64,000 nucleotides of DNA from Owenia fusiformis. Its lineage: Eukaryota > Annelida > Polychaeta > Sabellida > Oweniidae. Made by a program: the position numbers and the translations under genes. The stretch is from NCBI GenBank assembly GCA_903813345.2, contig CAIIXF020000005.1:3170356-3234355 (forward strand), in the 5' to 3' direction. Below are positions 8,731-47,269 of this stretch, piece after piece; position 1 is the first letter of the stretch; every line of letters begins with the position of its first letter. The notes beneath the pieces were generated by a model. That model was given only the letters and a program-made list of their open reading frames with translations. It searched no databases and was not told the origin of the DNA.

Positions 8731-8759
8731 TTTTTATTTAAATCAGCCTCATTTAAATT

Positions 8760-10371: not shown

Positions 10372-13300
10372 GGCTGATGAGATGGAGCTCTCAGAAGGTA
10401 ACCATAGTGATGCATTACAACATACGGAGGGCACTGTCATCTTACACATTACATTTGCTATAAAACAGGACCAAGATCTGGGCAAAGAGTTTCTGAAGTA
10501 CATAAAGGTATTGTTATGTTCTCTATCAACTGAGTCTGACAAAACCACAGTATTTCAATAACAATTACAGGCACAACAAATACAGAGTTTTATTCTTGTG
10601 TTACCTAAGTCATTAGTTTTACAATTAATTGAACAATATTCTTGCAGGAATGCTAGCACTTTGTTTGCTCACATATATAATTCATATTATATCCTGATAG
10701 TCTATGATAATGATACATGTAAATAATCTATGTTTTGCTTTGTTTTTGTCTTTCAGGCTTGTCACCAGAGTAGTCCTGAATCTGCCCTAGCTCCGTTCAA
10801 CATAGCTCTGTGCCTCTCTATTGCCAAAATGCACAGATTTCAAGAACAGGTACACTTCTAATTTGCTTTGAACAGTCACACAACTAATTTTTATTTTACA
10901 CATGATAATCATTACAAGTATGGTTCCTACATGTATAGTTCTATGTAAATTTTGATTTATATCAATACCTTGCCATTCATTCATTCAAGGTTAAACTTTA
11001 TTTTAACTCATACCTCACTTTCCAAAAAAAAGTCAAGAAATTTTTAATTCCTAATTTAATCTGATATTATAATGATTTACTGATCAAAACTATAGGTGAA
11101 TAAGCTGAATAAATATTCCTTGATGATCAAGATCCTAAATTCTATGAGCAAATTTCGAATTTTGTGGCAGACTTATAGTAATATGAAGTGTTTAAACAAG
11201 CTTTATATTTTTGCAGATATTTGATTTTCTAAAAAGTGCCATATTAAAGAGCTATAAGGACCTGGAGAAACAGACTGACAGCACATTTATCTCTTTGATG
11301 TTCCCAAAGCTGTCTAACACCGGAGGTCTAGTCATGGATACTGTTCAGAACAGGTAGGGGGACTTATGATGGATACAGGTCAAAATAAGAAGGAGTTAAA
11401 TTCATTGATACTGTTCAGAACAGATAGGGGGTCTAATAGTGGATACAGTTCAGGAAGGGGGTGTATTCATGGATACTATTCAGAACATGTGTGGGTCTAG
11501 TCATGGATACAGCTTAAAGTAATAAAGGGGTATATATATTGATACTGTTCAGAATAGGTATGGGTATATTAATGGATACTGTTCAGAACAGTTAGGCATC
11601 TAGTCATGGATACTGTTCAGAACATGTAGAGGGTCTAGTCATGGATACTGTTCAGAAAAGGTGGGGGGGTCAAGTGATGGATACTGTTCAAAACAGGAAG
11701 GAGGTCTAGTCTTGGATACTGTTCAAAACAGGTAGGGGGTCTAGTCATGGATACAGCTCAAAATAACAAGGGGGTATATTCATGGACACTATTCAGAACA
11801 GGTAGGGGGTCTAGTCATGGATACAGCTCAAAATAACAAGGGGGTATATTCATGGACACTATTCAGAACAGGTAGGGGGTCTAGTAATGGATACTGTTCA
11901 GAACAGGTAGGGGTCTAATCATGGATACTGTTCAGAACAAGTAGGGGTCTAGTTAGGGATACATTCAGAATAGGAAGGGGTCCATTCAGAACATTTTGAA
12001 AATAATGTCCTTGGTGTTTTGTTGCTTAATTGGTAAATATCAAAACTTTAATTATGATACCATTTACAGTAACACAGCACATGTATGTAAATCTGTTAAT
12101 ACAGTATTTTGTATCTTTCCTTTATAGCGTGCATGGTTGGGATGACGTGACACAGGGATTGGTCGAGCTAGGATTTGTGTTGATGGATGCCTTTGGTCCA
12201 AGAGCTGTGTTTGGAAAGATAGAACTTGTCCTACCAGGAAGCCTCACACCAAGCCAACATGCATGTAACCTGGGCTCAAAGCTACTTTTACAAACATTTA
12301 AGGTAAGTTTACATGCATGTAACTTAATGTCAAAGCTGCTTTTACAAACATTTAAGGTAAGTTTACATGCGTGTAACCTGGGCTCAAAGTTGCTATTACA
12401 AACATTTAAGGTAAGTTTACATGCATGTAACTTAAGGTCAAAGCTGCTTTTACAAACATTTAAGGTAAGTTTACATGCATGTAACTTGGATTCAAAGCTG
12501 CTCTTACAAACATTCAAGGTAAGTTTACATGCATGTAACTTGGATTCAAAGCTGCTTTTACAAACATTTAAGGTAAGTTTACATGCGTGTAACTTAAGGT
12601 CAAAGCTGCTTTTACAAACATTTAAGGTAAGTTTACATGCATGTAACTTGGGCTCAAAGCTGCTTTTACAAACATTTAAGGTAAGTTTACATGCATGTAA
12701 CCTGGGCTCAAAGCTTCTTTAACAAACATTTAAGGTAAGTTTACATTCATGTAACTTGGGCTCAAAACTGCTTTTACAAACACTTAAGGTAAGTTTACAT
12801 TCATGTAACTTGGGCTCAAAGCTGCTTTTACAAACATTTAAGGTAAGTTTACATGCATGTAACTTGGGCTCAAAGCTGCTTTTACAAACATTTAAGGTAA
12901 GTTTACATGCATGTAACTTGGGCTCAAAGCTGCTTTTACAAACATTTAAGGTAAGTTTACATGTATGTAACTTGGGCTCAAAGCTGCTCTTACAAACATT
13001 TAAGGTAAGTTTACATGCATGTAACTTGGGCTCAAAGCTGCTTTTACAAACATTTAAGGTAAGTTTACATGCATGTAACTTGGGTTCAAAGCTGCTTTTA
13101 CAAACATTTAAGGTAAGTTTACATGCATGTAACCTGGGTTCAAAGCTGCTTTTACAAACATTTAAGGTAAGTTTACATGCATGTAACCTGGGTTCAAAGC
13201 TGCTTTTACAATCATTTAAGGTAAGTTTACATGCATGTAACTTGGATTCAAAGCTGCTCTTACAAACATTCAAGGTAAGTTTACATGCATGTAACTTGGA

Positions 13301-16300
13301 TTCAAAGCTGCTTTTACAAACATTCAAGGTAAGTTTACATGCATGTAACCTGGGTTCAAAGTTGCTTTTACAAACATTCAAGGTAAGTTTACATGCATGT
13401 AACCTGGGTTCAAAGTTGCTTTTACAAACATTTAAGGCAAGTTTACATGCATGTAACCTGGGTTCAAAGCTGCTTTTACAAACATTCAAGGTAAGTTTAC
13501 ATCCATGTAACTTGGATTCAAAGCTGCTCTTACAAACATTCAAGGTAAGTTTACATGCATGTAACTTGGATTAAAAGCTGCTCTTACAAACATTCAAGGT
13601 AAGTTTACATGCATGTAACTTGGATTCAAAGCTGCTCTTACAAACATTTAAGGTAAGTTTACATGCATGTAACTTGGATTCAAAGCTGCTCTTACAAACA
13701 TTTAAGGCAAGTTTACATGCATGTAACCTGGGTTCAAAGCTGCTTTTACAATCATTTAAGGTAAGTTTACATGTATGTAACTTGGGCTCAAAGCTGCTTT
13801 TACAAACATTCAAGGTAAGTTTACATGCATGTAACCTGGGTTCAAAGTTGCTTTTACAAACATTTAAGGCAAGTTTACATGCATGTAACCTGGGTTCAAA
13901 GCTGCTTTTACAAACATTCAAGGTAAGTTTACATCCATGTAACTTGGATTCAAAGCTGCTCTTACAAACATTCAAGGTAAGTTTACATGCATGTAACTTG
14001 GATTCAAAGCTGCTCTTACAAACATTTAAGGTAAGTTTACATGCATGTAACTTGGATCAAAGCTGCTCTTACAAACATTTAAGGCAAGTTTACATGCATG
14101 TAACCTGGGTTTAAAGCTGCTTTTACAATCATTTAAGGTAAGTTTACATGCATGTAACTTGGGCTCAAAGCTGCTTTTACAAACATTCAAGGTAAGTTAA
14201 CATGCATGTAACCTGGGTTCAAAGTTGCTTTTACAAACATTTAAGGTAAGTTTACATGCATGTAACCTGGGTTCAAAGCTGCTTTTACAATCATTTAAGG
14301 TAAGTTTACATGCATGTAACTTGGGCTCAAAGCTGCTTTTACAAACATTCAAGGTAAGTTAACATGCATGTAACCTGGGTTCAAAGTTGCTTTTACAAAC
14401 ATTTAAGGCAAGTTTACATGCATGTAACCTGGGTTCCAAGCTGCTTTTACAAACATTCATGGTAAGTTTACATGCATGTAACCTTGACTCATTCCCATTC
14501 ACATTCCATTATTATAATTCCCTGTTTAACAAAATATTTGTTCTTTATTGTTCTAGGTTCATAATCTTGTGCGTAGTGAAATCCTGGAACAGCTGCTGAA
14601 CAGAATTGTTACCAAGACAACAGCCCCTGTATTCCACTATATAGGTACATTTAATAATAAATTCCATATGTTATTACTGGCTACATGTCCATCAGATATT
14701 CTAACTGTATTATTTGTATTTTGTGGAAATATAAAGCAGTATATATCAATCTTTTAATTAAATTGTAAAGCATTATAATTCTTTTATCTGCAGCCCATAT
14801 TTTCTATTGTATTGCACCCTGTGTATTGCAAGATGTTTTATAATATTTTTATATTTCAGAGTTATTGGAGAGCATTGTTAAGTTTTCACCTCACAGTGTC
14901 CTAGATGGACTTAACAAAGTGAGAGAGCTGTTGGATTACCTTGCCTTACTCCCCCCTGCCTCAGCTCTGGCTATATTGAAGTCACTACAACCCCTGGTTA
15001 ACATTAGTACATCTCTAAGAGACTCTCTCAATATGATCCTAAGAAAGGCTATGTTTTCTAGGTAGGTTCCATTGTGTATTATAATTCGTCCATACTGTAA
15101 TGGGATGTATTGCATATCTTTCAGGTCTTGGCTATTATTGTAAGATTCATTTGGTTGTATCTTAATTACATTTGAAATTTGATATTTAGTTTAAATCAAT
15201 ATTGCATTATTTAAGTATTAAATTAATAGATTACCCATCTCAATCATCAAACACTAGTTTAGCTGTACAAGACAATTTGATTGCGATATCTTTTTAGGCA
15301 GTTAGATTCACGTAAGATAGCCGTTGGTGGTTTCCTTCAACTGTTAAAGCACTCTAAGACCCTCACTGCTTTCTCATCTAGCCAAACAAGCAGCCAGTCA
15401 TTCTCTTCTAGTCAATCCACTGCCAGCCAGGTGAGGTTCTAGCTGCTCATTTATGTGAGCAGTTGTTTATAATGTAAATACATAGCAAAGCACAACTTTG
15501 GTACACTTAGGTGTGTAATGCCTTACCTGGTTTGTATCAAAGTGTTACACTTTTTTAATTTCAACCAGGTTGTGACATTTTGTCATGTTAATGTCTTGTC
15601 AACCCTGTACTATATTTAAGATTTCTAAAGTATGTGTAATGGTTACTCAAGGTGCTGGTAGACATTCACCAGAACACAACCCTAGGAAGTAAACAGCTTG
15701 TCAGCCTAGAGATTGTAGGAAGCCTTCGGAGATGTTTGACACAGCAAGCTGATGTGAGGCTGTCTCTATACCAGGTAATCAGATGGGCTAGCATATTTAA
15801 AATAACATCTTGAATATCATTCAAAATAGGGTGGAAACAATGAAGTTTTTGCAAAGGAATTCAAAAAAATAACATCCTTTTACTTGTATCAGGCATACAT
15901 TGTAAGAATTCATAACAGTACTACTAGGTGGAAAATGTAATTTACATTAAAAACATTCTAGGGACTATGTGACACCCTACAGAAGAATCCAGTGCTTGGG
16001 GAACCTATACTTCAGATGCTCAAGGCTCAGATGAAGGTCTACTACAAAAGTGTTGAGGATGTTGTCCCTCCTGTAGACTTGGAGAAATGTATAACAGCAC
16101 AGGGGGACCAGATCATCCTGGTTGAACCTCTGGTGAGTAGGGGACAGGCCTATAGTCAGGGGATCTATATGGAACACTATTTTTATTACATTGTCTGAAC
16201 ATTTTATGATGAAATGGACAACTTGAATGTCACAAAGATTATGCTCATCACAAGCTCATTGGCTTAAGTGATTTTATGTTCATATTGTATATACAATATT

Positions 16301-18359
16301 ACAGTGTATGGATAAAGCATGTGTTACTGTAAGGGGTTACAACTATTGTACAGTAGCAAAGGTTCAATAAATTGTTGCATGGTCTATCTTAGTGTTACTT
16401 TAATATTGTGTTACATTTCTAGACTCACCTAATGTACGCCATGCAACAGTGTGTGATACTATTTACTATCATATTGTGTTACATTTCTAGGCTCGCCAAG
16501 TGTACGTCATGCAACAGTGTGTGTTACTATTTACTATGATATTGAGTTACATTTCTAGGCTCGCCAAGTGTACATCATGCAACAGTGTGTGTTACTATTT
16601 ACTATAATATTGTGTCACATTTCTAGGCTCACCTAATGTACATCATGCAACAGTGTGTGTTACTATTTAGTATAATATTGTGTTACATTTCTAGGCTCAC
16701 CTAGTGTACGTCATGCAACAGTGTGTGTTACTATTTACTATAATATTGTGTTACATTTCTAGACTCACCAAGTGGTTGTCATGCAACAGTGTGTGTTACT
16801 TTTTACTATAATATTGTGTTACATTTCTAGGCTCACCTAGTGTACGCCATGCAGCAGTGTGTGATACTATTTACTATAATATTGTGTTACATTTCTAGGC
16901 TCACCTTGTGTACGCCATGCAGCAGTGTGTGTTACTATTTACTATCACATTGTGTTACATTTCTAGGCTCACCAAGTGGTTGTCATGCAACAGTGTGTGT
17001 TACTTTTTACTATAATATTGTGTTACATTTCTAGGCTCACCTAGTGTACGCCATGCAACAGTGTGTGTTACTATGTACTATAATATTGTGTTACATATTT
17101 AGGCTCACCTAGTGTACGCCATGCAATAGTGTGTGTTACTGTTTACTATAATATTGTGTTACATTTCTAGGCTCACCTAGTGTACGCCATGCAACAGTGT
17201 GTGTTACTATGTACTATGATATTGTGTTACATTTCTAGGCTCACCTAGTGTATGCCATGCAACAGTGTGTGTTACTATTTACTATAATATTGTGTTACAT
17301 ATTTAGGCTCACCTAGTTTACGCCATGCAACAGTGTGTGTTACTATTTACTATAATATTGTGTTACATATTTAGGCTCACCTAGTGTATGCCATGCAACA
17401 GTGTGTGTTACTATGTACTATAATATTGTGTTACATATTAAGGCTCACCTAGTGTACGCCATGCAACAGTGTGTGTTACATGTTGAGGATAATGATACAG
17501 ATGTCTATAATGACATCAATGATATGCTGGATTCGCTATCTAGACGGATGATTAAAAGTGAACTTGAAGACTTTGAACTGGTAGGTGAACTCGCATAGAA
17601 TTTAATATTGTTGTATTATGGGCAATAGGCTAAACAAATCATGATATTATAACTTTTAAGGAACAGAGTCTAATCTTTTACAAAGCTAGCCTTTTACAAA
17701 AAGAAAAGTGAAGAGAGGACAATCCTCCATGAGATTCAATAATTTGACCTCTCCACTTAGCATATTTTTCTTTCTTTTAGGATAAATCAGCAGACTTCTC
17801 CTTGAACACAGGTGTTGGTGTCAAAAATACAATATTCGCCATCTTAGTCCTGGGCTTGCTAGAGTCACTATGTCAGTATAATTTCTATGTGGAGGGACAT
17901 AGGTAAGAATATAAAATAATAAATTGGTTAAAAATATATATATATTATACAGTGTATAAATCTTTTGCCTAGTTTTGCATTATGCATATACTGCTTTGAC
18001 GAACTGCTATAATGTTGTTTAAAGGGACATATAATATACCAATTGTAAATATTACCTCTCATTAAGCCTTAGTATTATTACAGTGCGACACAAAACATAG
18101 CACACTCTAAAACAATTATAAGGTAAATTCAGTATTGTGTTAAAAATAATCAGCATTTTGAATTACATTACAGTACTATTTCATGATGTGTTTCATGTAC
18201 CTATAGCACTGAAAGATTCCAGCAGATTGTCGACTTATTTGCCAACTATCAAAGATTGATCCGTCTTACCAAAGAGAAAGAGAAAAAATCTTCAGGAAAA
18301 TCACCAACCAGTCTACTCTCAATGAAGTTTGTTATTGGAGCTCTGACTGGAATGTGCAA
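10372..18359 (+). CDS. FANCI: Fanconi anaemia group I protein, first 12 visible exons (5' end missing)
   Basis: FANCI pairs with FANCD2; the clamp is monoubiquitinated on DNA to start interstrand-crosslink repair in the nucleus. Exons by splice consensus and frame: 10372-10507, 10757-10849, 11217-11353, 12128-12302, 14557-14644, 14860-15061, 15298-15430, 15652-15774, 15962-16132, 17443-17580, 17781-17902, 18207-18359. Blocks matching human FANCI include [60 protein letters not shown]-like [13 protein letters not shown], and SLLSMKFV. The lysine in LDSRK is the counterpart of the ubiquitinated human K523. It is followed by a serine-rich stretch with four SQ/TQ sites, the counterpart of the ATR-phosphorylated cluster. 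About 250 N-terminal residues are not in view. Junctions at 11353, 12302 and 17443 are embedded in tandem arrays (see findings). The gene continues at 38161. Confidence 0.96.
11323..11990 (+). repeat. Tandem array A: 35-bp unit made of the FANCI exon end plus its 5' splice site
   Basis: The last ~29 bases of the exon ending at 11353 (ggtctagtcatggatactg...cagaacag) plus about 6 intronic bases (gtaggg) are repeated about 18 times through the following intron, with degeneration. A 70-bp double unit is repeated exactly around 11743-11880. Many copies keep cagaacag/gtaggg, a usable donor. The unit is not a multiple of three, so only the first donor keeps the frame simply. Confidence 0.9.
12258..14486 (+). 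repeat. Tandem array B: ~41 x 54-bp unit made of a FANCI exon end plus its 5' splice site
   Basis: The last 45 bases of the exon ending at 12302 plus the next 9 intronic bases (gtaagttta) form a 54-bp unit repeated about 41 times with little divergence. Each unit carries AAG/GTAAGT, a near-perfect U1 site; several carry GCAAGT instead. The length is 18 codons and both strands stay open over long stretches: [18 protein letters not shown] repeats on the plus strand and [18 protein letters not shown] on the minus. Breaks in the plus frame include a stop at about 12719 and a one-base loss near 14056. The next FANCI exon starts at 14557. Confidence 0.95.
16383..17478 (+). repeat. Tandem array C: 68-bp unit made of a 3' splice site plus a FANCI exon start, 16 acceptors
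   Basis: Acceptors occur at an exact 68-bp spacing with exon starts from 16423, 16491, 16559 and so on to the real one at 17443. Each unit has about 32 intronic bases (tttactataatattg..., ttacatttctag) and about 36 exonic bases (gctcacctagtgtacgcc, atgcaacag). Copies differ by a few substitutions and no indel was needed to keep the spacing. 68 is not a multiple of three, so only the last acceptor reads directly into [11 protein letters not shown] and the rest of FANCI. Confidence 0.95.
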
Positions 18360-18399
18360 GTAAGTTCAACTTATTTTACCATAGAGTACTTTTATTGCA

Positions 18400-20000
18400 A
18401 CTAAAAAAAGTTGCGATGTTGTTGTCAGAGTCTCACTTTTCTTGTCATTACAATTCCACGAAAACCACTTCATAGATTTACATCAAAGTTCATGCATGTT
18501 ACATTGTTATAAGTTCTAGAGCTGATTAACTTTTCAGTGGCCATCTTGGAATTTTTTGATAAATCTTGTCATTGTGAATCCAGGAAAACCACTCAGTGGA
18601 TTTATTTCAAATTTCTACACATGTTACATGGTAAGAAGTTCTAGAGCATATTAACTTTTCAGCAGTTATCTTGCATTCTGGCAGCCATTTTGGAAGTTTT
18701 AGATACATCTTGTCATAGTGATTCCAGGAAAACCATTTAACAGATTTACTTCAAATTTTTACACATTTTGATGACCATTTTGGAAGTTTTTAGATAAATC
18801 TTGTCATCGCAATTCCATGAAAATCACTTAATGGATTTTTACATGGTTATAAGTTCTACAGCTGATTGACTTTTCGATGGCCATCTTGCTTTCTGGGTCA
18901 ACAAGCCCACACTGTTATGTTTTAGGTACAATATTGTTCACCCTGTGCCTTGTTGTAATTTTATTACCCAATGAACGAAGTTCAATTCGGATTAAGTGAA
19001 GAAAATAACTGAAACACTGTAGCGAATGGATTTTTCTTCATATTCAATGAAATGTTGAATTTTGGTTAATGGTTTCAGGCAGAAATCTTTTTCAAGATGG
19101 CTGCCACTTTTAAAATGGCTGGAAATCTAAATTTTTCTGAACAAAGCTATCAGTATTGCTATTTAAAATTTTGGTTGATTATCTATTTCACATGTATAGA
19201 TTATTCTGAAGTATGACTTTGTTATTGATGAAAAGCATTTTACAGTAGATTGTAAATATTACATCATTTTTCTGATTCATGTCTCAGAAAAACAAAAATT
19301 ACCACCTGCTTTTGTAATATACAGTAATTTGTAGTATGTCTACATCTTACTCAAAAGTTTTTTAGAGAGTAGACCACAATTATTGTATTGTTTTTCTGTG
19401 CCTTAGAGACATCAAACCTCTACAGAAGAAAACATGTTCACGATGGCCATCGATCTTAAAATGGTTGCCATTTTTCATGAAGAAATAGGATTTGGGGAAT
19501 AAGACCTCTGTTGAACCTTGTTTTAAATTGGACCTCTGCTGAATAAGAAATTTAAGAAAGCCGAAGAATTGAAAATTGCCAACTTTTATGAAAAGATACT
19601 TAGAATATTTGTTATCAGATTCAGACTAAACTTGAAAGGCTATTTTGTCGTATAGGGGAAAAGGATCTCTGTTAGAGAAGAAATTTTTGAAATGGCTGCT
19701 CAATTCAAAATGGCTTCAACTTAATATTTTTGTCAGAAATATGATTTTGATAACTTGTATTTTAGTTGGCATATTTGTCTCAATTTATATTTTATTTTGG
19801 TCTAATTTTTATAGGGTCGTGTCTTTTTTGAAAAGGAACAATCTGTTTCAGAAACAATTTTAAATATGGCTGTTTAATTCAAATGGCCATCACTTTTTTT
19901 CATATAAAATAAAATTTTGATATCTCAAATACCAGTTGTCAGGTTTGGTTTTGATTTCATGTGTTTATGATTTGTTTGTGTTATTTCTTACCCTGGAGAG
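18400..20000. repeat. Degenerate ~150-bp tandem/interspersed repeats in the long FANCI intron
   Basis: Recurring phrases (cttgtcat..caattcca.gaaaaccac, ttcaaatt.ctacacatgtta, aagttctagagctgatta, aaaatggc.gccatttt) mark a degenerate family related to the repeats at 30690-33150. No coding capacity was recognised. Confidence 0.6.
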
Positions 20001-20389
20001 TTGCTGTTTTCTAGTTATTTTTTATTCTATTTGATGATGTATTGCACTTCTTTCCAAATTCAAAACATCTTCACTTGATTAATGGAGAGCCCATGTTAAC
20101 TGAGGAAGTTATTACCCTGACTTTATGATTGAATATTGCATTTTTCTTTCTGACCCTGTACATACAATAGGTAAAGGGTTAACCTGGGCCACTGTTAATT
20201 TAGACACAGCTTGAATTTATCAAAAAATCCTACTTATGTGGTTAACAGCATGACAGTTTTTTATTAATGTTATTACTTTTTTTACATGGTGGACATTTTC
20301 TCAAACTTTGATTCAAGCTTCATTCGAGCTGAAATGTCATTGACCATTAGTATATGGGAAAGTATACCTGCTGGGACATGGTTACATAC

Positions 20390-20551
20390 ATAAACAAAGC
20401 CTAATATAATGAGTGTATACCATAAAGGGCAAACAGAATGTCCTAATAAAATGAGTGTGTATACCATAAAGGGCAAACAGAATGTCCTAATATAATGAGT
20501 GTGTAAACCATAAAGGACAAACAGAATGTTCTAATATAATGAGTGTGTATA
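20390..20551. repeat. ~44-bp tandem repeat, left part of an interrupted array
   Basis: The unit 'accataaagggcaaacag'/'aatgtcctaatataatgag'/'tgtgtat' recurs about four times. The same unit resumes at 22382, so an insertion split one array. Confidence 0.85.
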
Positions 20552-22381
20552 CCCTTATAAAAAATTCAACCTTGAAAGTCCGAATTTAAACCGTTTCCAC
20601 CAATCATTGAATAATGATTGTTTCAACTACCAAGATCAAAGGGAAAACCATTGTACGATGATAAGCAACCATTGTGTTCAACCAAGCGAAGTCAACTCTT
20701 TTTCAATGAATGCGCAACCGTTTCTATACAATGATTGTAATCTGAAACCATTGTAAACTGCAACCATTTCACATTGAAATGTAAATGGTTGCAATTTGTT
20801 TTGTTCAATGATTACATAGTTCAACCCCTGCAACCATCCTGAATTAGTATCGTTCCAAAAAATTATCATTTTACCTGAATTAAAATTATCTTTAAGTAAG
20901 GATTCTGCAAGCATACATGCATGTTTATTATAGTAAATAACTTAATTCATGTTAATATGTTTCTTTCTCCAGTACGAATTTAGGAATGCAATACCAGACT
21001 AATTTTCCACTCAATGGCATATGATAATTTATGTTCTCTGTCATTTACATTATTTACACAAATTAAAAGTACCATATTTAGTGTTTATTTCCCTTTATCA
21101 GATATTGCCAAAATGATGTTAATTCTGAAAAGAATTGAGCAAAATTCCAAGGAACATCTTAAGATTTCCTTTAAACTTAACAAAATCACAAGATGAGACA
21201 CAATGGTTTTTGTTCATGATCAGACTGATGATCAAACAATACCTACTACATGTACATATTGATATTCTCATGGGTTTAGGCAAATCAGACTGCTTGAAAA
21301 GCCAATTAAAATGGTTGAACAGCTAATTAAAACGGTTGAACAGCTAATTAAAACGGTTGAACAGCTAATTAAAATGCTTGACCAGAAATAGGGTTCATAT
21401 TCCTAGTTTCTGTTATATTTATTTTCATATTGTGTTATACTATATATATTTTTTTATTCTCTATTTCATGCAGAGGGGGGAGGAAAATATGGGAAATTTT
21501 CTTTGGCAAATTATTTATCATGTTCTGTGTATGGAATAATTATATTACATAGGATGCTTCCTTTATAGCAGAATCTAATCAAATCTCTCTGTTATAAGGT
21601 TTGTTTTGCCTTGCCGAATTATTTTTGTTTTGTTTATGGATTAATGGATTAATAAAGTTTCTTTAGACACATCCTTCAAAGCAGACTCTAAAGATGACTG
21701 AGTCTTTCTGTAATCAGAATTTTTTAAGTTATGCTTATTGACTTAATTATTTAAAACACATCCTGTAATGTCTGATTGCATTTTCTCTATCAAATCAAAA
21801 ATATCAAATCAATAAACAGATTATTTTCTGATTGAAGGATTTCTTCCTTCCAGACAGATCTTCCCTCCTTTATAATTGTGATAATTACTCAGGTGAAGGT
21901 GAAGTATAAGTGTCTGAATTTGTAAAATTCAAGACTTGACCCAATCAAAATTATTTCAAATGTTTTTGCAATAAAATTGGTTCAATATCTTTTCATTCAC
22001 AAGACAAGTTTACTAAACTATTTCAATACTTTAAATATCTTTTTGATCAAAAAAATTTAAATTCTGACATGTATGCATGAATGAAATTTGAAATATATAT
22101 TTTAAAGAGCAATATAATTATTTTATGTTGTATTGAGATAATATTGCCATAGGTTTAAAGGGTTGCGTTCGTTTGAAACGGTTGCAAGAAATTCAATCAA
22201 AATTGTCAAGCGTTTACAATGTTTACATATGATTGAAACATTTTCAATGAGTTTACAACCAAAATTGTAATGGTTGCATTGTAACGGTTGGCATGGTTGC
22301 ATAAATGATCGGATCAATGATTGTACAAGGATTGTGCAACGGTTTAAATTCGGACTTTCAAGGTTGAATTTTTTATAAGGG
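20552..22381. mobile_element. Non-autonomous TIR DNA transposon inserted in the ~44-bp array
   Basis: The ends are inverted copies: CCCTTATAAAAAATTCAACC at 20552 and its reverse complement ending at 22381, continuing inward through a block ending at AAACCG. The target-site duplication appears to be TA. The interior (1.83 kb) holds many caatgattg/caaccattg motifs and a short tandem run (cggttgaacagctaattaaaa) near 21310-21380, and no transposase. Superfamily is not certain; the TA duplication fits Tc1/mariner-like mobilisation. Confidence 0.8.
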
Positions 22382-22625
22382 TACCATAAAGGGCAAACAG
22401 AATGTCCTAATATAATGAGTGTATACCATAAAGGGCAAACAGAATGTCCTAATAAAATGAGTGTATACCATAAAGGGCAAACAGAATGTCCTAATATAAT
22501 GAGTGTGTAAACCATAAAGGACAAACAGAATGTTCTAATATAATGAGTGTATACCATAAAGGGCAAACGGAATGTCCTAATATAATGAGTGTGTATACCA
22601 TAAAGGGCAAACAGAATGTCCTTCC
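22382..22625. repeat. ~44-bp tandem repeat, right part of the interrupted array
   Basis: About five further copies of the unit described at 20390, directly after the right end of the inserted element. Confidence 0.85.
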
Positions 22626-23430: not shown

Positions 23431-23432
23431 CC

Positions 23433-30473: not shown

Positions 30474-30689
30474 CCAGGAAAAAGGAGATGGCAATTTATC
30501 GAAAAAAGCAAAAAATCATGAAATAACCGAATTTTTCAGTCGAAGCGTGGGTAAATTTCCCATGGGATTTGGGTCTCAAAATTTGGTGTGCAGGTGTTTT
30601 AGGTCATGGACAACAGTAAGTCAAATGAGGAAGATGATCCGAAAGAAAGTTGTTTTTTTCGCCATATTTTGGACCACCGGACGTTGACC

Positions 30690-33150: not shown

Positions 33151-33179
33151 TAGTTGCTGTATGTTTTATGAATACTAGT

Positions 33180-34015: not shown

Positions 34016-34095
34016 TAACAACAATAATAAGATTTTATTAGTACTGATGCCCTTTTAGGGCCAAACATACATCGGATATAAAATATTATGAGAGA

Positions 34096-34371
34096 GAATA
34101 TTCCTACAGCACTAGTGTTTGTAATATGGTCATCAATTCTTGAAATACTATCTGTCCACAAGTGGTAACAAAACCCTTGATGGAGAGAGTGTATACATTG
34201 CACTATTTTTTAGATTAAATACGTTATTTCTAATCTCCAAATTTGTTATCTATTTTTCTCCTTGTGCTTTAATCAACCATATTGAAGCTATAAAAAGATG
34301 TGGAATCATTCTGAGAAAGACCAGTCGAAGTCGAAAGTTCCCAATATCTCTATCACTGAGCTGTTGGTCAG
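34096..34371 (-). pseudogene. Fragment of an SLC35G/EamA-like transporter gene
   Basis: Two pieces of the neighbouring gene are joined with the intervening membrane region missing: DDHITNTSA from the central loop (about 34100-34140) and the N-terminal part QLSDRDIGNF...LVFLRMIPHLFIASIWLIKAQG (about 34260-34371). It lies just downstream of the intact copy at 34579-35799 on the same strand and is best read as a truncated tandem duplicate. Confidence 0.8.
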
Positions 34372-34575
34372 GTCTGTAGCCAGGATTTGCAAAGGGGGTA
34401 CAATTTTTGTTAAATTCCAGTGGGGTTCGCTTTTGACAATTTTGGCCCAAAAATAGCCCAAATTACTTGAAAAGTGCTCAGAATGGTGAAAACTGCATGA
34501 TTGTGAAAGAATTTTTAGCCAAAGGGGTTCGAACTCCCAAACTCCCTCTGGAATACAGAAATACCTTAACACATA
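34372..34575. repeat. 'gtagccaggattt' interspersed repeat fragment
   Basis: It opens with gtctgtagccaggatttgc and carries 'ggggttcg' and 'aactccc' phrases, like the elements with cgtagccag ends at 60245-61512. It is inserted between the transporter fragment and the intact gene. Confidence 0.5.
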
Positions 34576-34578
34576 GTT

Positions 34579-35799
34579 TTATTCATTCGATTTGTAAAGT
34601 TGTGGAAATTCAAAAGTCTTAGATTTTGTCAAAACCACGTCTTTGTTTGTACGTATCATAACCTGTTGTAATGTTGCTTTTTTGTGTTTATTATTCTCAT
34701 CTAGACAAATGTTTTGAACAGGTATCAATAGAATACTGATAATAACCAAACAACATCCTAGTATCTCTAATATATTGGCATGTCCACTGTAGCTACTATG
34801 GAAGATGGTATACTGTAAGATTACTCCAAGGACAATAGTGAATGTGAAGAGAATAGAAGCAAGTGATGCTGGTATTAGTTTCATTGTTATTATATATCCA
34901 ATATTGTAGCCAATGCTCCCGACTGTGAAGCCAATGATACATAAGACATCATGGAGGTTTTTTGGTGTCTTGAAGCCTTCAAAGCATATCCCTATGCCAG
35001 TGAGAAATATCCCAACAGCACTCATATTGAAAAACATCTCTGGAGACGATGTGGTTTTCTTAATCAATGTACTAGTACTTATTGTCAATATGCTAACATT
35101 GACTGCATCTATAAACACAATTATGTATCCCTGCCAAATTGGTGGAATACTTTCTGGTACATTGGTAGTACCATTGCTTGAGTTTAGAGTGCTTATACTT
35201 GAGTTTGTAGGACAGATATTGGTAGTGCCAATGGTTGTAGCGCTAGTATTTGTAATGTGGTCATCGATTCCTGAAGCACTTTCTGTCCACAATCGTCGTA
35301 ACAAAACACTAGATTTAACATATTTGAAAATCAGATCAGGTTGAGTCACAGATATGATCCCAGCTATACTGATAATAACTGTAAATAATTTGATAAAGTT
35401 GATCCTTTCCTTGAGAAATATTCGAGCAAGAATAACAACTAGTACCAGTCTGCCTGAATTCATTATGCTGTAGATGCTTCCCATACCAGCCATGGTGCGC
35501 AGTCCAGCCACCAAAAGGAACACTGAGAATGTATACAGTACACTATTTATTAAATTGAAGACACCATTTTGAATCTCCAAATGTGTTATCTTATTTTTTT
35601 CATTTTGTTTCTTAATCAGCCATATTGAAGCAATGAAAAGATGTGGAATCATCCTGAGAAATACCAGTTGAAAGTTCCCAATATCTCTATCACTGAGCTG
35701 CTGTACACATAATCCACCAAATGTTAGAGATGTAGATGACAGTAGTCCTGTTAGAACACCTAGCAATTTCACTCTGTTCTCAGCATCATTGTAAGACAT
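34579..35799 (-). CDS. SLC35G/EamA-like drug/metabolite transporter superfamily protein, second intact copy
   Basis: A 406-residue product with the same length, helix pattern and central Asn/Ser/Thr-rich loop as the gene at 24977-26197, from which it differs at few positions: mostly the N-terminal residues (MSYNDAENRVKLLG), the segment after WLIK, and scattered substitutions. The shared C-terminal block (LLIPVQNICLDENNKHKKA) is identical. Such closeness implies a recent duplication or gene conversion; the two copies are about 8.4 kb apart with the foldback element between them. The ATG at 35799 is taken as the start because an in-frame alternative upstream is absent. It is intronless and antisense within the FANCI intron. 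Substrate is unknown. Confidence 0.9.
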   Translation of the reverse strand: MSYNDAENRVKLLGVLTGLLSSTSLTFGGLCVQQLSDRDIGNFQLVFLRMIPHLFIASIWLIKKQNEKNKITHLEIQNGVFNLINSVLYTFSVFLLVAGLRTMAGMGSIYSIMNSGRLVLVVILARIFLKERINFIKLFTVIISIAGIISVTQPDLIFKYVKSSVLLRRLWTESASGIDDHITNTSATTIGTTNICPTNSSISTLNSSNGTTNVPESIPPIWQGYIIVFIDAVNVSILTISTSTLIKKTTSSPEMFFNMSAVGIFLTGIGICFEGFKTPKNLHDVLCIIGFTVGSIGYNIGYIITMKLIPASLASILFTFTIVLGVILQYTIFHSSYSGHANILEILGCCLVIISILLIPVQNICLDENNKHKKATLQQVMIRTNKDVVLTKSKTFEFPQLYKSNE

Positions 35800-37560
35800 T
35801 ATTATAAGATATTATCCGGCTCTCGAGTCACAGCTGCATCTATTCCATACTAGATTTTTATGCTGACATTTTTTGGTTATCCAATGAATAAATTTTGGTA
35901 GAGATGTAGCGAAGCCAGTCAGTCAGTCTGTCTGTCCGTCTAGGCAGACTCAAATACTAGTGAGCTAATTTGCATTTTGTTTGGTAGAATGGTGTCCATT
36001 GGTAGACATTTTACACATTTTCAATTTTGAATATCAAAATCATTCAATGATTCAATTATAATTGAATGATGTATGAAATTTTGGTAGAGTATATCAACAT
36101 CATTATTGTCTCCATAAAATCACCAAAGTATATCTTAATGATATTCAAACCTGAGGTTATTAAGAGTATATGGAGATTACAAATATTCTGTTGTGCTTCT
36201 GATGTGTGACAATAAGAATACAAAATGGTTGTCCAAATGCAGGAAATGGCACTAATTTTTGAGATTTCATTCAAAATACCATCTTCTATATTCATGGTGT
36301 GTCATGCCTGAGAGGATCTTGAAGATCTTCATGAAACCAATCAAAAGTTTCCAAATATTTGTTTCACCAGCAGTCAAACGAGGTGTATTCAAGATGCCAA
36401 AATACAAAATATTCAAATACATGTATTTATGATTGTAATGTATTTAGATAGAATGATTAGTGGAAATATATTTTATTTTTGGTATTTGCTACACTGTGGA
36501 GCTTCTGCCTCTACCTACTGGGCTGTTTCATGGCCAACAGAAAAAATTTTTTTGTACATTTTATTGTTTATTCAAGGTTGCGATTTTATTTGAATGGGTT
36601 TTGTAATGCATCATGTCCTTCTTTCATAGTCTGCGCAATAAATCTTCATGATATTCAAAAAAATGAATAAAATCGTAGTTTCAGTGCATTTTGGTGCAGT
36701 TCAACCGAATAAAAGCTGTTCTTCATGTTGACTTTTATGCATACCAAGCGTTAAGGTCAATTCTATACACTCGTTGGCCTGGGGAGTAATAAACAATAAT
36801 GTTTGTAAATTTAAAGGCCCCATATAAAGTTAAAACTACTTTGGCTTATCCTGACTAATGTTATCAAAATGGACTAGGTGAAAATGTTCAAGTTAATAAT
36901 GATTTGATTTTGAAAGAATTTTTATTTGAAAAATTGTAAATTCACTTCAAATGAAATTTTAGTTGTCACACACATACATTGTTGAGCAATAATTTAACAC
37001 ATAACAAACATCCTCACCCATTTTATGTTGAAAAGAAAATTGGTTTTAAAATGAATTGATGTTTTTTGGATGAAAAACATAAGTGAAATGCATGAAAAAA
37101 CTCTCCCAATTCATTCGACAAACAACTCCCCCTCATTTTGTGTCAACTGAAGATACCAACTTTTTACTGGTATAGTAATAGGTAATAGTTAAAAGTTATT
37201 TGAAATACCCTTTTCCATAATCACTGTTGTTAAAAAAGAGGAAATACATTTTTGGATGTACATGTATCTTAATTTTTGTCCAAATTTAATGATTTTGGCA
37301 TCAATTGAAGATTGGGCATATCAGATGAGATATTAATAAAGATGTAGGCTCATTTGCATTTGTATTTTGACATAGCTAATTTTGGCCTGTTTTTTGTATC
37401 TATAATTTAATAATGGTATAATGATCATCACAGGATATTCTACTTTAAATTGTACAAAGTATACAAAAAATCTGTTCAAATGGCATACCATATATTTCAT
37501 AATTGAAATAATAAGTATTGTTTATATCAACCCATTCAATTGATTGGATGTCCTATACAT
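35800..37560. other. Intronic AT-rich DNA with a short CTGTCTGTCCGTC-type repeat
   Basis: A tract with gtcagtcagtctgtctgtcc near 35915 recalls the opening of the 2061-3400 repeat. The remainder, to the start of array D, shows no supported gene. Confidence 0.4.
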
Positions 37561-37568
37561 ACTGATAT

Positions 37569-38240
37569 TACATCTTCTCACTGTTTGTTACATGTATGTT
37601 ATTCTATATTTCCAGTGATGAAATGCCAGACAGAAAAGAGAGTCTTGCTCTCCTCCGTAACAGCCCTGACTTCACCCACCATCTTCTCAGTGTATATTAC
37701 ATGTATGTTATTCTATATTTTCAGTGATGAAATGCCAGACAGACAAGAGAGTCTTGCTATCCTTCGTTACAGCCCTGACTTCACCCACCATCTTCTCAGT
37801 GAATATTATATGTATGTTATTCTATATTTTCAGTGATGAAATGCCAGACAGACAAGAGAGTCTTGCTATCCTCCGCAACAGCCCTGACTTCACCCATCAT
37901 CTTCTCAGTGTATATTACATTTATGTTATTCTATATTTTCAGTGATGAAATGCCAGACAGACAAGAGAGTCTTGCTATCCTTCGTTACAGCCCTGACTTC
38001 ACCCACCATCTTCTCAGTGTATATTACATGTATGTTATTCTATATTTCCAGTGATGAAATGCCAGACAGACAAGAGAGTCTTGCTATCCTCCGTAACAGC
38101 CCTGACTTCACCCACCATCTTCTCAGTGTATATTACATGTATGTTATTCTATATTTTCAGTGATGAAATGCCAGACAGACAAGAGAGTCTTGCTATCCTC
38201 CGTAACAGTCCTGACTTCACCCACCATCTTCTCAGTGTAG
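37569..38240 (+). repeat. Tandem array D: 109-bp unit made of a 3' splice site plus a FANCI exon start, 6 acceptors
   Basis: Exon starts recur at exact 109-bp steps: 37616, 37725, 37834, 37943, 38052 and the real one at 38161. Each unit has about 30 intronic bases (tattacatgtatgttattc, tatattttcag) and about 79 exonic bases encoding [19 protein letters not shown] and onward to HHLLSV. A partial seventh copy starts near 37569. Copies differ at only a few sites. 109 is not a multiple of three, so only the last acceptor reads on into FANCI. Confidence 0.95.
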
Positions 38241-41200
38241 GTGTGCAGAAACTACAGCAGATCTCGGATAAAGGGACACCGGATGAAGCAGAGGATGTAA
38301 CGCATAAGAAACTACTGGAGTATGTTACAACATTGGCCAGGTAAGGTGGGAATTATTGTTTGATTATGTCATCAACACAAATGGTGACATATTGTTATAA
38401 TCTCCAACTTTTTTTGTGTCGGTGGTTGGTGTTTGACGCATTATGTTCAGCATCTGTAACAAATGGTAGGTGGTGAAATAACTTGCATTAATTTATCAGG
38501 TTGTAACACTCTGTCATGCTAATACTTTGTCTCATGCTTCAGCCAAGTTATTTCCTGGATTATAATCTTCTGATAGTTAGTCAGATTTAGATAGTTGGAA
38601 AATCTCAGATGTATTTCTTCCAACCTGATTTTCTAGACTTTTTTTTTTTTTTTTTTATTTATTTCATGATAATATAACAATGGAATGTAAAACTAAAGTT
38701 ACCCAAAACATTAATTACATTTTTTCTTTGTAATTTGAAGTACATTTTTCCAGTAGTTTGATGCATTCCCTTATTTCACTTATCTTTTCATTTCAAACTA
38801 TGCCCTTATAAATGTTTCCACATTTTTAAAGGATTCTACTGAAGGAATACACAAATGTAACTGACAATGCAGACTCGCACCTGAATGCACTAAGTAAGCC
38901 TGCTCTGCTGCTCTGTGTGGAGGGACTGTATTACGCAATCAACATTGTAAAAACACGCTTCACAGACAGTCTTCAGACATTCCTCATTAAACTAGGTACA
39001 GTAACCTGTAAATGTATCTGTAAAAATTTTCATGGGGATGCGCATTAGTAGTATGTGATGTTCCAGATGGTACTATTTCTCAAGTAGCAGTTGTGGGAAG
39101 TGAAGGTTTGTTGTCTTGTTATATTTCACAATGTGACCTTGTTACATTTCAGACCCTGTGACTACACCAGATAAGACCAATGTTCTCTCAGATGTAGATA
39201 CTATACATAGGTTCATTAAGAAACTACAAGTAAGTTAACATGTCACCACCAGAAGTGTTAAAGTTTTCATCTTTTTTGTGGATGGCAGTTGGTGTTCGGC
39301 ATTCGTTGTTTGGTGGTCAGCACCTGTAACAAATGGCAGGTGCTGACATTTTGCATGTTAATGCCTTGTCTATGATATTTACTGCATGTAAGCTCAAAGG
39401 CCCATGAAGAGGTGGCATGTTGTTATTGCTTTACCAGGTTGTAACTTGTGATGACTTGTTTTTGTGTTTTTTTTTCAAATGAATATCAAGAAGTAAATAT
39501 ACAATTGTGACTCTTATTGTTAAATGTGGTAAATTTTTCAAGTATGGAATATTTTGTCAACAGTATAATGGCAACTTATGAAATACTGGGTATTTGAATT
39601 TAAAGCAAATGTGTTTCTAGCGCATGGTGATGAGTGTGTTGACCAGTGAAGATAGGCCATCAAAGGAAGCCTCAATGTTACTAGAAACTATAGCAAAGCT
39701 GGGTAAAGCACTACCCTCAGTGAGTCCCCAACATGATCAACTCCTCACTTGGACTAGTAATCTATGCAAGGAGCAAACACCAGGTATGTTGCCATTTCAG
39801 GAAGGTTCTTTTCTTCATAATCATTTTATTGTGTCACCATTAGTCATTTTTGGATGATGTTCAGCAGTCGGTGTTTGGTGGCTGATGGTCAGGAGTCAGT
39901 GTTTGTAGCAAATGGCAGTTGGTGACATTTTGCATGTTAATGCCTTATGAATGTTATGCCTCTATTGATCCATATGTCTGTCAGTTCATCTGTCTGTTCA
40001 TCCAGGCAATAACACAAATAATGTTGGCCTGATATTGTTTATTGTATATTATATGGGATAAGTTACAAAAACTAGTGCAATACTACAAATGGAGATTAGA
40101 ATGCTGCACCTGCAAAATCATGTTTATAAGAGCATAGTTCCATAATTGTGTGATTGTTTCTTGAGAATGTCCCATCTTCATTTAATCCATTATCTAAAAT
40201 ACAGTCCATAACATCTTTATATTTATTCAGCTGGGCTTTCATGCCATCATCAAATGGATCAGTTTCAGTGTCATGTTTGCGTTTGTAATGTTTCCTGTGG
40301 AAATTCCCCTCTGCGTTACAAACAACACAATTGACGACATTATCAGATACATCAATTTTGAAGAATTTAGCCAATTTTCTTAGTTCCCTTTCCAAATTTG
40401 TTTTCATGTCTTCATATTTGATCACAAGAAGGTCTTCTATTGTCCGACCATTCAAAAACAACTGGATATATGTTGCATAGAAATTGTACCAGTAATTAGC
40501 TGCCCATTGTTTTCCATAAAAGAAAAATTCCCATTGTGATTTGTATTTTGTGAAAAGGTTATCAGGAAGATATGTTGCTGCTAAGCTGTCTATTTGTCCA
40601 TGTTCTTGCATATATTCACGTTTGAACTCTGACATCATCGCCTCAAATGGATTCCTTATAATCAGTACTGCCCTTGTGAAGCTTATATTGGATTTTGCTG
40701 GACTTTCATGGGTTTTAATTACTATCACAGAGTTATCCCGTCGCGATTCCCCCATAAAGCCCCCTCTTTTTAGAGCATTAGCATCATATATGCTACCAGT
40801 ATATACACCAGTTAGTTGTTCTATAAGGTGACGAGTCCAGGTATTCCCGCTACCAGGGTAACTGGCGAGGGCTGTCAGAGGCTGGAACCAACCAAACTCC
40901 ACCTTCCTGCATACATTACTAAACCTGAATTCCCCAGTGGTTAGGTTATAGCACTTCATTGTGTCTTGTGGTACTGTGAAGGCCTCTACCTTTTTCATCA
41001 ATAGAGCCGTTTCGTATAAATTTGACCTTTCTTCATTGTTGATTTCATCCAGTTCGTCAAACAGCTTCTTTCCAGCGATACTTGGATTACGATCCAAAAT
41101 GTTCTGTATCCCGATTTTTTTGTTTAACACATAATTGTTATATTGAGATTTTGCCATGCCATATTTTGGAAGAGGCGTGGACGGGTTCTTAACTTCATGT

Positions 41201-44200
41201 TCATTAGAACTTGTGTCCATAGTACTTTCGAGGTTGAAGAAGAATTTCAAGTCACCCAGGAAAGTGACAGTTGTTACCAGGCAACATAACCAAATAATCA
41301 ATAAACATAAATTACACTTCATATAGCATCTTACAAACATGTTTATATTTATCAAATCTAGAAATCATCCGTCTACATATGGTCTCATCACTTCTATACT
41401 CTGTCTTAGAATTTCAGAATCATTTTGACAGGTTTACAGTGTTCCTCTTTTTAATTGTACATTTACTTTGTATGATCCTTGCCTTCGATTCACTTGGGCT
41501 TGATTCATTTACCTAATGGTAATGTTGAAGATACAAATAAAGGGTTATTGTTAATGTTCTCGGAGTAGCTGTTGTGTTACCATACCTGGGGACACTATTA
41601 AGATAATAAATTGTTATGGCTGCTTTAACAGAAAAACTGGACGCATATAAAACAGGAATTAACGACAAGGGGTTGTTTTTACTGACCTATTGATTTTATG
41701 TCACCACCACAATGTTGAAATATTGTTATAATAGTCTTCAACTTTTTGGGGGGTGTCTGTAACAAATGGCAGGTGGTGACATTTGGAATGTGAATTGCAG
41801 TTGTTAAAATCATGGTTTCCTATAAATTTGCCACTTGATTTCATTTATCTGCCTGGAGCACATTAAAACATCATTGCTTTCCACTGGTTACCAATTATTC
41901 ACCCTTTTTATATCCGACATTGTGAACAATTTGTTACTTGTAGATGACAATGGTTTAATCAAGGTGCTAGTCAGTCTGTTGATTCAGTTGACATCCAGAC
42001 ACAAATGTTGCCTGTCTTTACTACGAGACATTGGACGAGATCTTCATAGCCTGCTAGGGGATATTGATCAGGTAAACATAGAGAGAAAAATGTGTAAAGT
42101 GGAACACCTAGAAATGGAACACCTCTGATAATGGAACACTTTTCAGAGTCCAACTGACTTAATGTTAAATAAACATCTATAAGTAAAACACCTCTCAAGT
42201 GGCACACTTTTAAAGGTACCAAAGGTGTTCCACTTAGACATGTTTTACTGTATTCTATTTCTGTAAACTTTTGAATTATTTGAATATTATTTTACTTAAC
42301 TTCAGATTTAACTACCTATTTATGTATATAATGTCGACATTATTATATTTATATTAGATCACAGATACCATAAGCTATGGCAGAATATTTCTATAAGTCC
42401 ACCCATAAATGTCATAATACACATAACAGAACAAATCACTGATATGTCTGAGCTGAACATTTTAGGAGATAGAGCTGGAAGTAAGTGGTCATTATCGTGT
42501 TGTAACTGCCAAGAGTTGCACCACTGTATTCCCACTTGTGCTACTCTCCCTAGACAAACAGCTGGATAACACTGAATGGGCAGTCAACCGAATCAAGGCA
42601 GAGGCTTCGGCTTTAGAGTCACAAAATCAAGGTAAATTACACATTTAGGTTGTTCTGTGCCTTTGTTGGTCATCTTAATTCCACTGTTTACGTTAACACG
42701 ATTTTTATGTCACCACCAATTTTTATGAACTGTGTTGGGGTCTGTAACAAATGGCAGGTGGTGACATTTTTCATGTTAATGCCTTGTTCATTGTTTATTG
42801 TCCATCCAGTTATAATTAATGTTTTAATTTGTAACCTTCTAATCCAAGATAAATTACTTGTGTGAACTGTAAATTGTCTCAAAACTTTATAAGTTGCAGA
42901 TTTGCTATTTATTATAAAATATTGTTGGCCAATGAATGATGTTCTCTGGAGCACTCTATGTAGAGAGATTGAGATTGATTGAAGCTTTTATTTTGTAGAC
43001 ACAGACTTGACACAATTAGAAACATCACGTGAGACTGCGGAGAAGCAAATATGTGTGCGCCTTGGTCTAGTGATCAATGTAATACATGAACTTATCCAGA
43101 GTGCAGTGCCTCCAGGACACATTACAGACCATCTTCTAAAGTGTATCACCAAGCTGTACAATACGATAACACTGCTTGTAAAATATGTGAGTATATAGAG
43201 TATCACCAAGTTTTATGATGCAAATACACTGTTGTAAATTTTTGAGTATGTCACCAAGTTGCATGATCGCACTGTTTGTAAAATATTTGATATACACAAA
43301 GTTGTATGGTGTGTAAAGCACCAAGTTCTATGATCCAACTATCTGTAGGTCTATTCCACCAGAAAGTCTAAATTCATGATCCCATTGCTGTTTCAGTATA
43401 TAGGACTATTCCACCAAAAAGTCTAATTTCATAATTTTATTGTTGTTTCAGTATATAAGTCTCTACCACCAGAAAGTTGGTCACATGCCTGGCAAGTTTG
43501 AGAGGTTGGTGAAATGCTCTGGTACATTGCTTACACAGTATGTCTACTCGGTGATCATATATCTACAGGTATTTATAAGATTAAATTATTATCTTTCATA
43601 GCGTTCTATTATATTATATTTAATACAAGTATCTATGATATCTCCATTGAAACCTGTAAAGTGGAACACCTCTAGAAGTGGAACACCTCTTAGTGGAACA
43701 CTTTTCAGAATTCAAAGACCAAATGACTTAATGGTGATGAACCTCTATAAGTGAAACACCTCCCAAGTGGAACACATTTTAAAGATACCAAAGGTGATCC
43801 ACTTAGACGGGTTTTACTGTGTATTATTTTATGACAAATTATTGACTTCATTATTGTAGCAAAGACAACCTGAGCCCATGCAGCAGACAGGAGCTGTGAA
43901 AAAACTTGAGAAGAAATCTGCCAATGGACAAGGGGTCAAAGGAAAGGTATACTCTCTAGTTTGCATTATCATAAAGAGATAAGACACATAAATAAGATAT
44001 AATGTAATGTATTATTATCCATGAAGTGACATTATGACTCAGAAAGGCAAACATCCGATTAGCAGTATTCATTCACTTATTTAACATATTATGTTGTAGA
44101 TTATAATTGTTTGCAGTTCATATATAAATGTATTTCAACTATTTTAACTAACTAGAAGTAAATAAATATAAACAATACAAAAAATGAAGTTGTGACATTT

Positions 44201-47265: not shown

Positions 47266-47269
47266 AATT

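What the first reader, a model, noticed from the sequence alone, without database searches (positions are those of the whole stretch)
11323..43481. Six FANCI exon-intron junctions have each become a tandem array whose unit is the splice junction itself
In one gene, three exon ends (at 11353, 12302 and 43186) and three exon starts (17443, 38161, 43452) are each repeated in the adjoining intron with the splice site included. Donor-side units keep about 6-10 intronic bases, roughly the U1 footprint; acceptor-side units keep about 30, enough for a branch region, pyrimidine tract and AG. The arrays differ in sequence and unit length (35, 54, ~53, 68, 109, ~57 bp), so they arose independently. Inference: only duplications that carry a full splice signal are tolerated, since the extra copy is then absorbed into the intron, and FANCI in this lineage has been unusually prone to them. 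I know of no described case of junction minisatellites recurring within one gene.
Basis: partly seen in the sequence, partly recalled or inferred. Interest (0 to 1): 0.93.

Follow-up and report, generated by a model that had tools for sequence, protein, structure and literature searches.

The report
Splice junctions repeated inside one gene
In one animal DNA-repair gene, six exon-intron borders have each been copied over and over into the neighbouring intron, probably harmlessly because the cell can still splice at the original border; single examples of the kind are known, but six in one gene is unusual.

Summary
The window holds 24 exons of FANCI in one open frame (10372-45928), and six of its 47 splice junctions are repeated in tandem into the adjoining intron, at exactly the stated coordinates. 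Their similarity scores lie 10-55 s.d. above shuffled introns; the other 41 lie at 3.8 or below. The protein aligns without a gap to solved FANCI chains across all five introns concerned, so the exon-proximal copy should be the working splice site. The units are unrelated and differ in length (35-109 bp) and divergence, which points to separate events of different age. Intron 19 (265 bp) is almost wholly built of copies of its own two junctions.

Best explanation: ordinary local tandem duplication, tolerated because a copy that carries its splice signal becomes intron, then minisatellite expansion. No clear sign that the copies' splice sites are maintained. An excess of arrays at junctions is suggestive only: P 0.0009-0.002 if each array is one event, but P 0.11-0.19 per position over the window.

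"FANCI unusually prone" is untestable: no genome is held. The kind is not new (IFI6 splice-donor minisatellite; potato junction-spanning duplication); six in one gene was not found in the listings seen.

The parts
10372..45928 (+). FANCI gene, 24 exons modelled; stop codon at 45926-45928; exons for about the first 267 residues were not located
   Evidence: One open frame through 24 exons, 23 introns all GT..AG; Pfam FANCI_HD1, S2, HD2, S3, S4; query residues 12-1066 aligned to residues 268-1328 of PDB chain 7ay1_A
11325..11994 (+). Array A1: 35-bp unit, 19 full copies plus a truncated one; unit = last 29 nt of exon 3 + first 6 nt of intron 3
   Evidence: TRF; z 20.8 at donor 11353; copy table; mean pairwise identity 0.75, GT kept in 10 of 19 copies
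12257..14483 (+). Array A2: 54-bp unit, 41 copies plus a partial one; unit = last 46 nt of exon 4 + first 8 nt of intron 4
   Evidence: TRF; z 24.6 at donor 12302; 36 GT and 5 GC of 41 copies, mean pairwise identity 0.92
16389..17479 (+). Array A3: 68-bp unit, 16 copies; unit = about 35 nt of the end of intron 9 + first 33 nt of exon 10
   Evidence: TRF; z 40.3 at acceptor 17443; AG in 16 of 16 copies, mean pairwise identity 0.90
37571..38239 (+). Array A4: 109-bp unit, 6.1 copies; unit = 30-45 nt of the end of intron 12 + 64-79 nt of exon 13 (15-nt ambiguity)
   Evidence: TRF; z 54.7 at acceptor 38161; AG in 6 of 6 copies, mean pairwise identity 0.95
43139..43347 (+). Array A5: degraded ~53-bp unit; last ~45 nt of exon 19 + ~7-12 nt of intron 19; intronic copies 43197-43249 and 43251-43294, a further degraded one at 43318-43347, weak one at 43295-43317
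   Evidence: z 10.1 at donor 43186; alignments; 43318-43347 against the neighbouring copy p 0.0005, but against the exon end p 0.17; 43295-43317 p 0.009 and 0.15
43346..43477 (+). Array A6: 55-bp unit, 2.4 copies; unit = about 29 nt of the end of intron 19 + first 26 nt of exon 20
   Evidence: TRF; z 16.2 at acceptor 43452; alignment
43187..43451 (+). Intron 19 (265 bp), nearly all of it copies of its own donor junction (A5) followed directly by copies of its own acceptor junction (A6)
   Evidence: the assignment of 43295-43347 is the weak part

Best explanation
These are junction minisatellites. Shown: at six FANCI junctions a stretch spanning the splice site (exon end + 5' splice site, or end of intron + 3' splice site + exon start) is repeated head to tail into the intron (only the intron side was scanned; the ungapped protein alignment speaks against copies kept in the exons). 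Inferred: each array began as one ordinary local tandem duplication. Because the copied stretch carried the splice signal, splicing at the exon-proximal copy left the mRNA unchanged and turned the new copy into intron, so selection did not remove it. Unequal exchange or slippage then expanded some arrays (up to 41 copies) while others decayed; intron 19 became almost wholly junction copies. The extra copies are most likely near-neutral decoys, at the cost of some mis-splicing (mostly premature stops, and in array A2 possibly in-frame insertions of 18 residues or multiples of it).
For: Repeats span the splice site at exactly 6 of 47 junctions, with a clear gap in score to the rest. The FANCI alignment has no gap at any of the five introns concerned, so the exon-proximal copy is the conserved exon border. 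Predicted use of other copies: A1 9 of 9 GT-bearing intronic copies, A3 15 of 15 and A4 5 of 5 give a premature stop; A2 33 of 40 do, 7 of 40 give open in-frame insertions. Units unrelated and of different divergence (mean pairwise identity A1-A4 0.75, 0.92, 0.90, 0.95). Splice dinucleotides of the copies are no better kept than the rest in A1 (mismatch 0.33 against 0.16) and A2 (0.06 against 0.05); A3 and A4 show 0 mismatches, too few copies to decide. In A2 a run of units recurs further on in the same order (7 unit pairs differing at 0-3 of 54 positions), as unequal exchange would leave.
Against: If tolerance were the only filter, about 1.5 junction arrays would be expected among the 13-19 counted in this gene, not six (P 0.0009-0.002, post hoc). 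The donor units keep only 6, 8 and ~9 intronic nt, near the minimum; P about 0.004 if the junction fell at random in the unit (post hoc, n=3). A3's exon-proximal acceptor is the weakest of its 16 copies by a crude matrix (0.2 against 2.3-7.2), so why it should be chosen is not explained. A2's copies show an excess of synonymous variants (p 0.010, one of four arrays tested), not expected of plain intron. No RNA data.
Confidence: 0.72

Rival explanations
1. Splice junctions of this gene are mutational targets: a transcription- or splicing-coupled process (for example breaks or re-priming at R-loop or U1-bound positions) makes tandem duplications preferentially at junctions.
For: Six junction arrays against about 1.5 expected by placement; junction arrays have more copies and are longer than the 13 other TRF clusters of the gene (one-sided p 0.014 and 0.011); within the shorter FANCI introns only 5 and 6 of 316 grid positions reach score 40, which predicts under one of 47 (P 0.0001-0.0003); donor units end 6-12 nt into the intron.
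Against: Per-position grid control over the window: 184 of 2618 (7.0%) donor-like and 217 of 2618 (8.3%) acceptor-like positions outside the six arrays and FANCI exons reach score 40, i.e. 3.3-3.9 expected of 47 against 6 seen, P 0.11-0.19 (the grid always searches 600 bp, junctions only their intron, so the grid is the more lenient). The grid hits fall in few clusters, mostly in the 20-kb intron and outside the gene. No shared sequence between units. The window was picked because it looked odd.
Confidence: 0.15
2. The arrays are maintained for a function: tunable mis-splicing into unproductive mRNA, in-frame isoforms from A2, or extra U1 sites that guard a long transcript against premature cleavage.
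For: A2 has 36 GT and 5 GC donors in 41 copies; 7 of its 40 extra donors leave the frame open; its intronic copies show 13 synonymous to 12 non-synonymous variants against a neutral synonymous share of 0.27 (p 0.010, one of four arrays tested).
Against: Splice dinucleotides are not conserved above the unit average in A1 and A2; A1 has lost GT in 9 of 18 intronic copies; synonymous shares in A1, A3 and A4 are not significant (p 0.52, 0.53, 0.13); I see no function that donor and acceptor arrays would share.
Confidence: 0.07
3. Assembly artefact: copy number inflated or copies falsely joined.
For: No reads can be examined here; tandem arrays are hard to assemble.
Against: Copies carry many different point variants and, in A2, nested block structure, which an assembler would not invent; six arrays of unrelated unit and different divergence.
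Confidence: 0.04

Closest known systems
IFI6 (6-16) splice-donor minisatellite, human (Turri, Cuin and Porter 1995: title in two reference lists and one citing sentence seen; the paper itself is not held)
   Same: [quoted passage not shown] two downstream repeat units are used as donors, giving three mRNA species (citing sentence)
   Different: One array, donor side (that it overlaps the exon end, with a short unit of about 12 bp, is recalled); here six arrays, donor and acceptor sides, longer units, most copies giving a premature stop if used
Junction-crossing tandem duplication in a potato RNA-dependent RNA polymerase gene (PMC4974935; abstract and Results section read)
   Same: A tandem duplication across an intron-exon boundary whose copy inherits branch site, pyrimidine tract and 3' splice site
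   Different: Two copies, and it created a new intron; here up to 41 copies, absorbed into the existing intron
[quoted passage not shown]
   Same: Tandem duplication is made tolerable by splicing signals inside the duplicated segment
   Different: The model makes a new intron from an exonic AGGT segment; here existing introns lengthen. Intron 19 is the only one that might be such a case

Membership tests
Splice-junction minisatellite (IFI6-like) | Short tandem repeat array that overlaps an exon-intron junction | tested here: met
   Six arrays, alignments span the junction
Splice-junction minisatellite (IFI6-like) | Repeat units carry usable splice sites | tested here: inconclusive
   Splice dinucleotide present in A2 41 of 41 (5 of them GC), A3 16 of 16, A4 6 of 6, but A1 only 10 of 19; use cannot be seen without RNA
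Splice-junction minisatellite (IFI6-like) | More than one repeat unit used as splice site in mRNA | not testable with these tools
   No transcripts held
[quoted passage not shown]
[quoted passage not shown]
   Introns 3, 4, 9 and 12 keep 139, 81, 291 and 19256 bp outside the array bodies, so they look older than their arrays; intron 19 is nearly all copies, but its presence in relatives could not be checked
Introners (mobile introns) | Copies of one element at many intron sites (abstract opening of PMC9860276 seen) | tested here: not met
   The six units are mutually unrelated within this gene (15 comparisons); other genes not held

The most novel reading that the evidence does not exclude
Splice junctions of this gene, perhaps of this genome, are hot spots of tandem duplication tied to transcription or splicing, and introns here grow, and in the case of intron 19 may even have been built, from repeated copies of their own borders.
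Probability: 0.13. Interest if true: 0.85.

Novelty: new variant of a known kind. Interest (0 to 1): 0.52.

Why it matters
It is a natural experiment in splice-site choice: the same gene offers 41 near-identical donors in one intron and 16 acceptors in another, of which only the exon-proximal one gives the conserved protein. It also shows a route of intron growth from the borders inward. If a genome count shows junction arrays above the rate of random placement, it would point to a link between splicing or transcription and local duplication.

Tried and rejected
Whole-genome rate of such arrays: not possible, no genome is held for this window. Relatives: a 143-residue FANCI piece searched in viral contigs, 26 pattern matches, none a relative; no other sequence collection was searched, since the rest open to me hold bacteria, archaea, phages and plasmids. 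Pseudogene: rejected, the frame is open through the 24 modelled exons. One source repeat spread to six places: rejected. Selection keeping splice sites in the copies: no support in A1 and A2, too few copies in A3 and A4. Microhomology as cause: exact matches at the exon-side breakpoints are 0, 0, 4, 15 and 0 bases for A1, A2, A3, A4, A6 (A5 not tested); these, and A2's 14-base partial unit, could as well be truncated copies at the intron-side edge, so undecided. Growth from the exon end: A3 copies are more like the exon copy the nearer they lie (rho -0.77, p 0.0009), A1 the reverse (0.52, p 0.03), A2 and A4 not significant (p 0.58, 0.19): no common rule. Other genes of the window as control: 46990-56815 has no TRF array of score 50 or more and holds open frames on the minus strand of which three matched SRCR domains, but I did not define those exons, so this is a weak control. 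Papers on an earthworm metallothionein and an abalone TSSK gene tell of intronic minisatellites, but the passages seen do not place them on a splice junction.

Overlapping TRF rows were merged (11426, 17268, 22382 with period 86, 32615 and 32698 into their neighbours), the row 43227 went into A5, and the 43-bp array split by an insertion (20400 and 22382) was counted as two.
Full report
What is there. The window is 64,000 bases of A+T-rich DNA (G+C 0.34), from an animal by its genes. Two open frames on the minus strand (3-1613, reaching the window's edge, and 7060-8733) match the amiloride-sensitive sodium channel family; the second has FMRFamide-gated channels as its best solved matches, which suggests a mollusc or annelid (inference; the species is not known to me). 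I built a 24-exon model by hand, 10372-45928, with 23 GT..AG introns; it gives one open frame of 1077 residues and a stop. Pfam finds FANCI_HD1, S2, HD2, S3 and S4, and residues 12-1066 of the protein align with residues 268-1328 of PDB chain 7ay1_A, 'Fanconi anemia group I protein'. Exons for about the first 267 residues were not located; they lie upstream of 10372, in the window or beyond it.

The observation. I compared each of the 47 junctions (donor: 45 exon + 12 intron bases; acceptor: 35 intron + 45 exon bases) with up to 600 bases of adjoining intron, against 200 dinucleotide-preserving shuffles of that intron. Six stand apart: 38161 (z 54.7), 17443 (40.3), 12302 (24.6), 11353 (20.8), 43452 (16.2), 43186 (10.1), none reached by any shuffle and all six alignments spanning the splice site. 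The next is z 3.8, and the remaining 40 are at most 2.3. Only the intron side was scanned.

Anatomy. A1 (donor, 35 bp, 19 copies plus a truncated one), A2 (donor, 54 bp, 41 copies plus a partial one), A3 (acceptor, 68 bp, 16 copies), A4 (acceptor, 109 bp, 6 copies plus a partial one), A5 (donor, ~53 bp, degraded), A6 (acceptor, 55 bp, 2.4 copies). Mean pairwise identities for A1-A4 are 0.75, 0.92, 0.90, 0.95. With gapped columns left out, the A5 exon copy is 0.79 and 0.89 identical to its two clear copies, and the A6 exon copy 0.79 to the next. Of 15 unit-to-unit comparisons, 13 give shuffle fractions of 0.10 or more and two give 0.023 and 0.050, unremarkable among 15. A5 and A6 lie in one intron, number 19, and tile nearly all of its 265 bases. 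The weak part is the middle: 43295-43317 (p 0.009 against a neighbouring copy, 0.15 against the exon end) and 43318-43347, which matches its neighbour (p 0.0005) but not the exon end itself (p 0.17).

Which copy works. The PDB alignment runs without a gap across all five introns, so the exon-proximal copy is the conserved exon border. Predicted effect of using another copy: a premature stop for 9 of 9 GT-bearing intronic A1 copies, 15 of 15 A3 copies, 5 of 5 A4 copies and 33 of 40 A2 copies; for 7 of 40 A2 copies the frame stays open, adding 18-126 residues. A5 and A6 were not tested this way. By a crude matrix trained on the gene's other junctions (20 donors, 21 acceptors), 35 of the 41 A2 donors have the same score, the exon's own included, and A3's exon-proximal acceptor is the weakest of the 16. 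How the exon-proximal site wins is thus not explained by site strength; nearness to the exon's other splice site (exon definition) is my inference.

Are the extra copies under selection? In A1 the GT is lost in 9 of 18 intronic copies, and the dinucleotide mismatch (0.33) exceeds the unit mean (0.16). In A2 it is 0.06 against 0.05. In A3 and A4 no AG is lost, but at the unit means only about 1.7 and 0.3 mismatched bases would be expected. Variants in the exon-derived part are as expected for unconstrained sequence in A1, A3 and A4 (p 0.52, 0.53, 0.13). In A2 synonymous variants are in excess (13 to 12, neutral share 0.27, p 0.010), which could mean repeated re-seeding from the exon or some translation; it is one of four tests.

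Is the position at junctions more than chance? The controls disagree in part. Treating each array as one event placed at random among tolerated positions, 1.57 junction arrays are expected among 19 in the gene (TRF score 50 or more) and 1.45 among 13 (score 100 or more, plus all six), and six or more occur with P 0.002 and 0.0009; leaving out the interior of the 20-kb intron, P is 0.0012. Treating each position alike, 184 and 217 of 2618 grid positions outside the arrays and exons reach a score of 40 (donor-like and acceptor-like), which predicts 3.3-3.9 of 47 junctions, and six or more then has P 0.11-0.19. Within the shorter FANCI introns it is 5 and 6 of 316, which predicts under one (P 0.0001-0.0003). 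All of this is post hoc, since the window was chosen for looking odd. The excess is therefore suggestive, not established. Junction arrays have more copies and are longer than the other 13 TRF clusters of the gene (p 0.014, 0.011).

Mechanism. Shown: the repeats, their span and the intact reading frame. Inferred: single local duplications tolerated because splicing at the exon-proximal copy discards the rest, later expanded by unequal exchange or slippage; in A2 a run of units from 13391 recurs in the same order, one unit shorter, from 13823 (seven unit pairs, 0-3 differences of 54). Not shown: which splice sites are used, and whether the arrays vary between individuals.

What is known. [quoted passage not shown] the paper is not held). 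A potato gene gained an intron by a duplication crossing an intron-exon boundary, with splice signals inherited (abstract and Results read). A review calls tandem genomic duplication a genuine route of intron gain (passages read). Nine library searches listed no paper that I recognised, from title and abstract opening, as describing several junction arrays in one gene. Four of them listed only part of their hits (15 of 24, 20 of 47, 15 of 16, 10 of 17), one search had no hit, and most subscription papers are not in that library. A tenth search, for FANCI in molluscs (10 of 96 listed), gave nothing relevant.

Verdict. Observation confirmed; interpretation partly supported; a new variant of a known kind, worth a genome-wide count.

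Noticed in passing
20400-22622: A 43/44-bp tandem array is split by an insertion of about 1.8 kb whose ends are inverted repeats (38 bases identical), with what looks like a TA target duplication: a DNA transposon-like element that jumped into a minisatellite (read).
   Followed up: partly
23436-26419 and 34582-35811: EamA-type transporter open frames on the minus strand nested in the 20-kb FANCI intron 12: 24980-26419 and 34582-35811 match the family and look closely alike by eye; a third at 23436-24494 is similar by eye only.
   Followed up: partly
40099-41364: Sulfotransferase open frame on the minus strand nested in FANCI intron 16.
   Followed up: no
3-1613 and 7060-8733: Two long sodium-channel open frames (ASC family) on the minus strand, the first reaching the window's edge; the second matches FMRFamide-gated channels best among solved structures.
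   Followed up: partly
42100-42260, 43652-43820, 45628-45790: A dispersed repeat rich in 'GTGGAACACCTC' motifs recurs in three FANCI introns, perhaps a transposable-element fragment (by eye).
   Followed up: no
13391-14199: Array A2 has higher-order structure: a run of units from 13391 recurs in the same order, one unit shorter, from 13823.
   Followed up: yes
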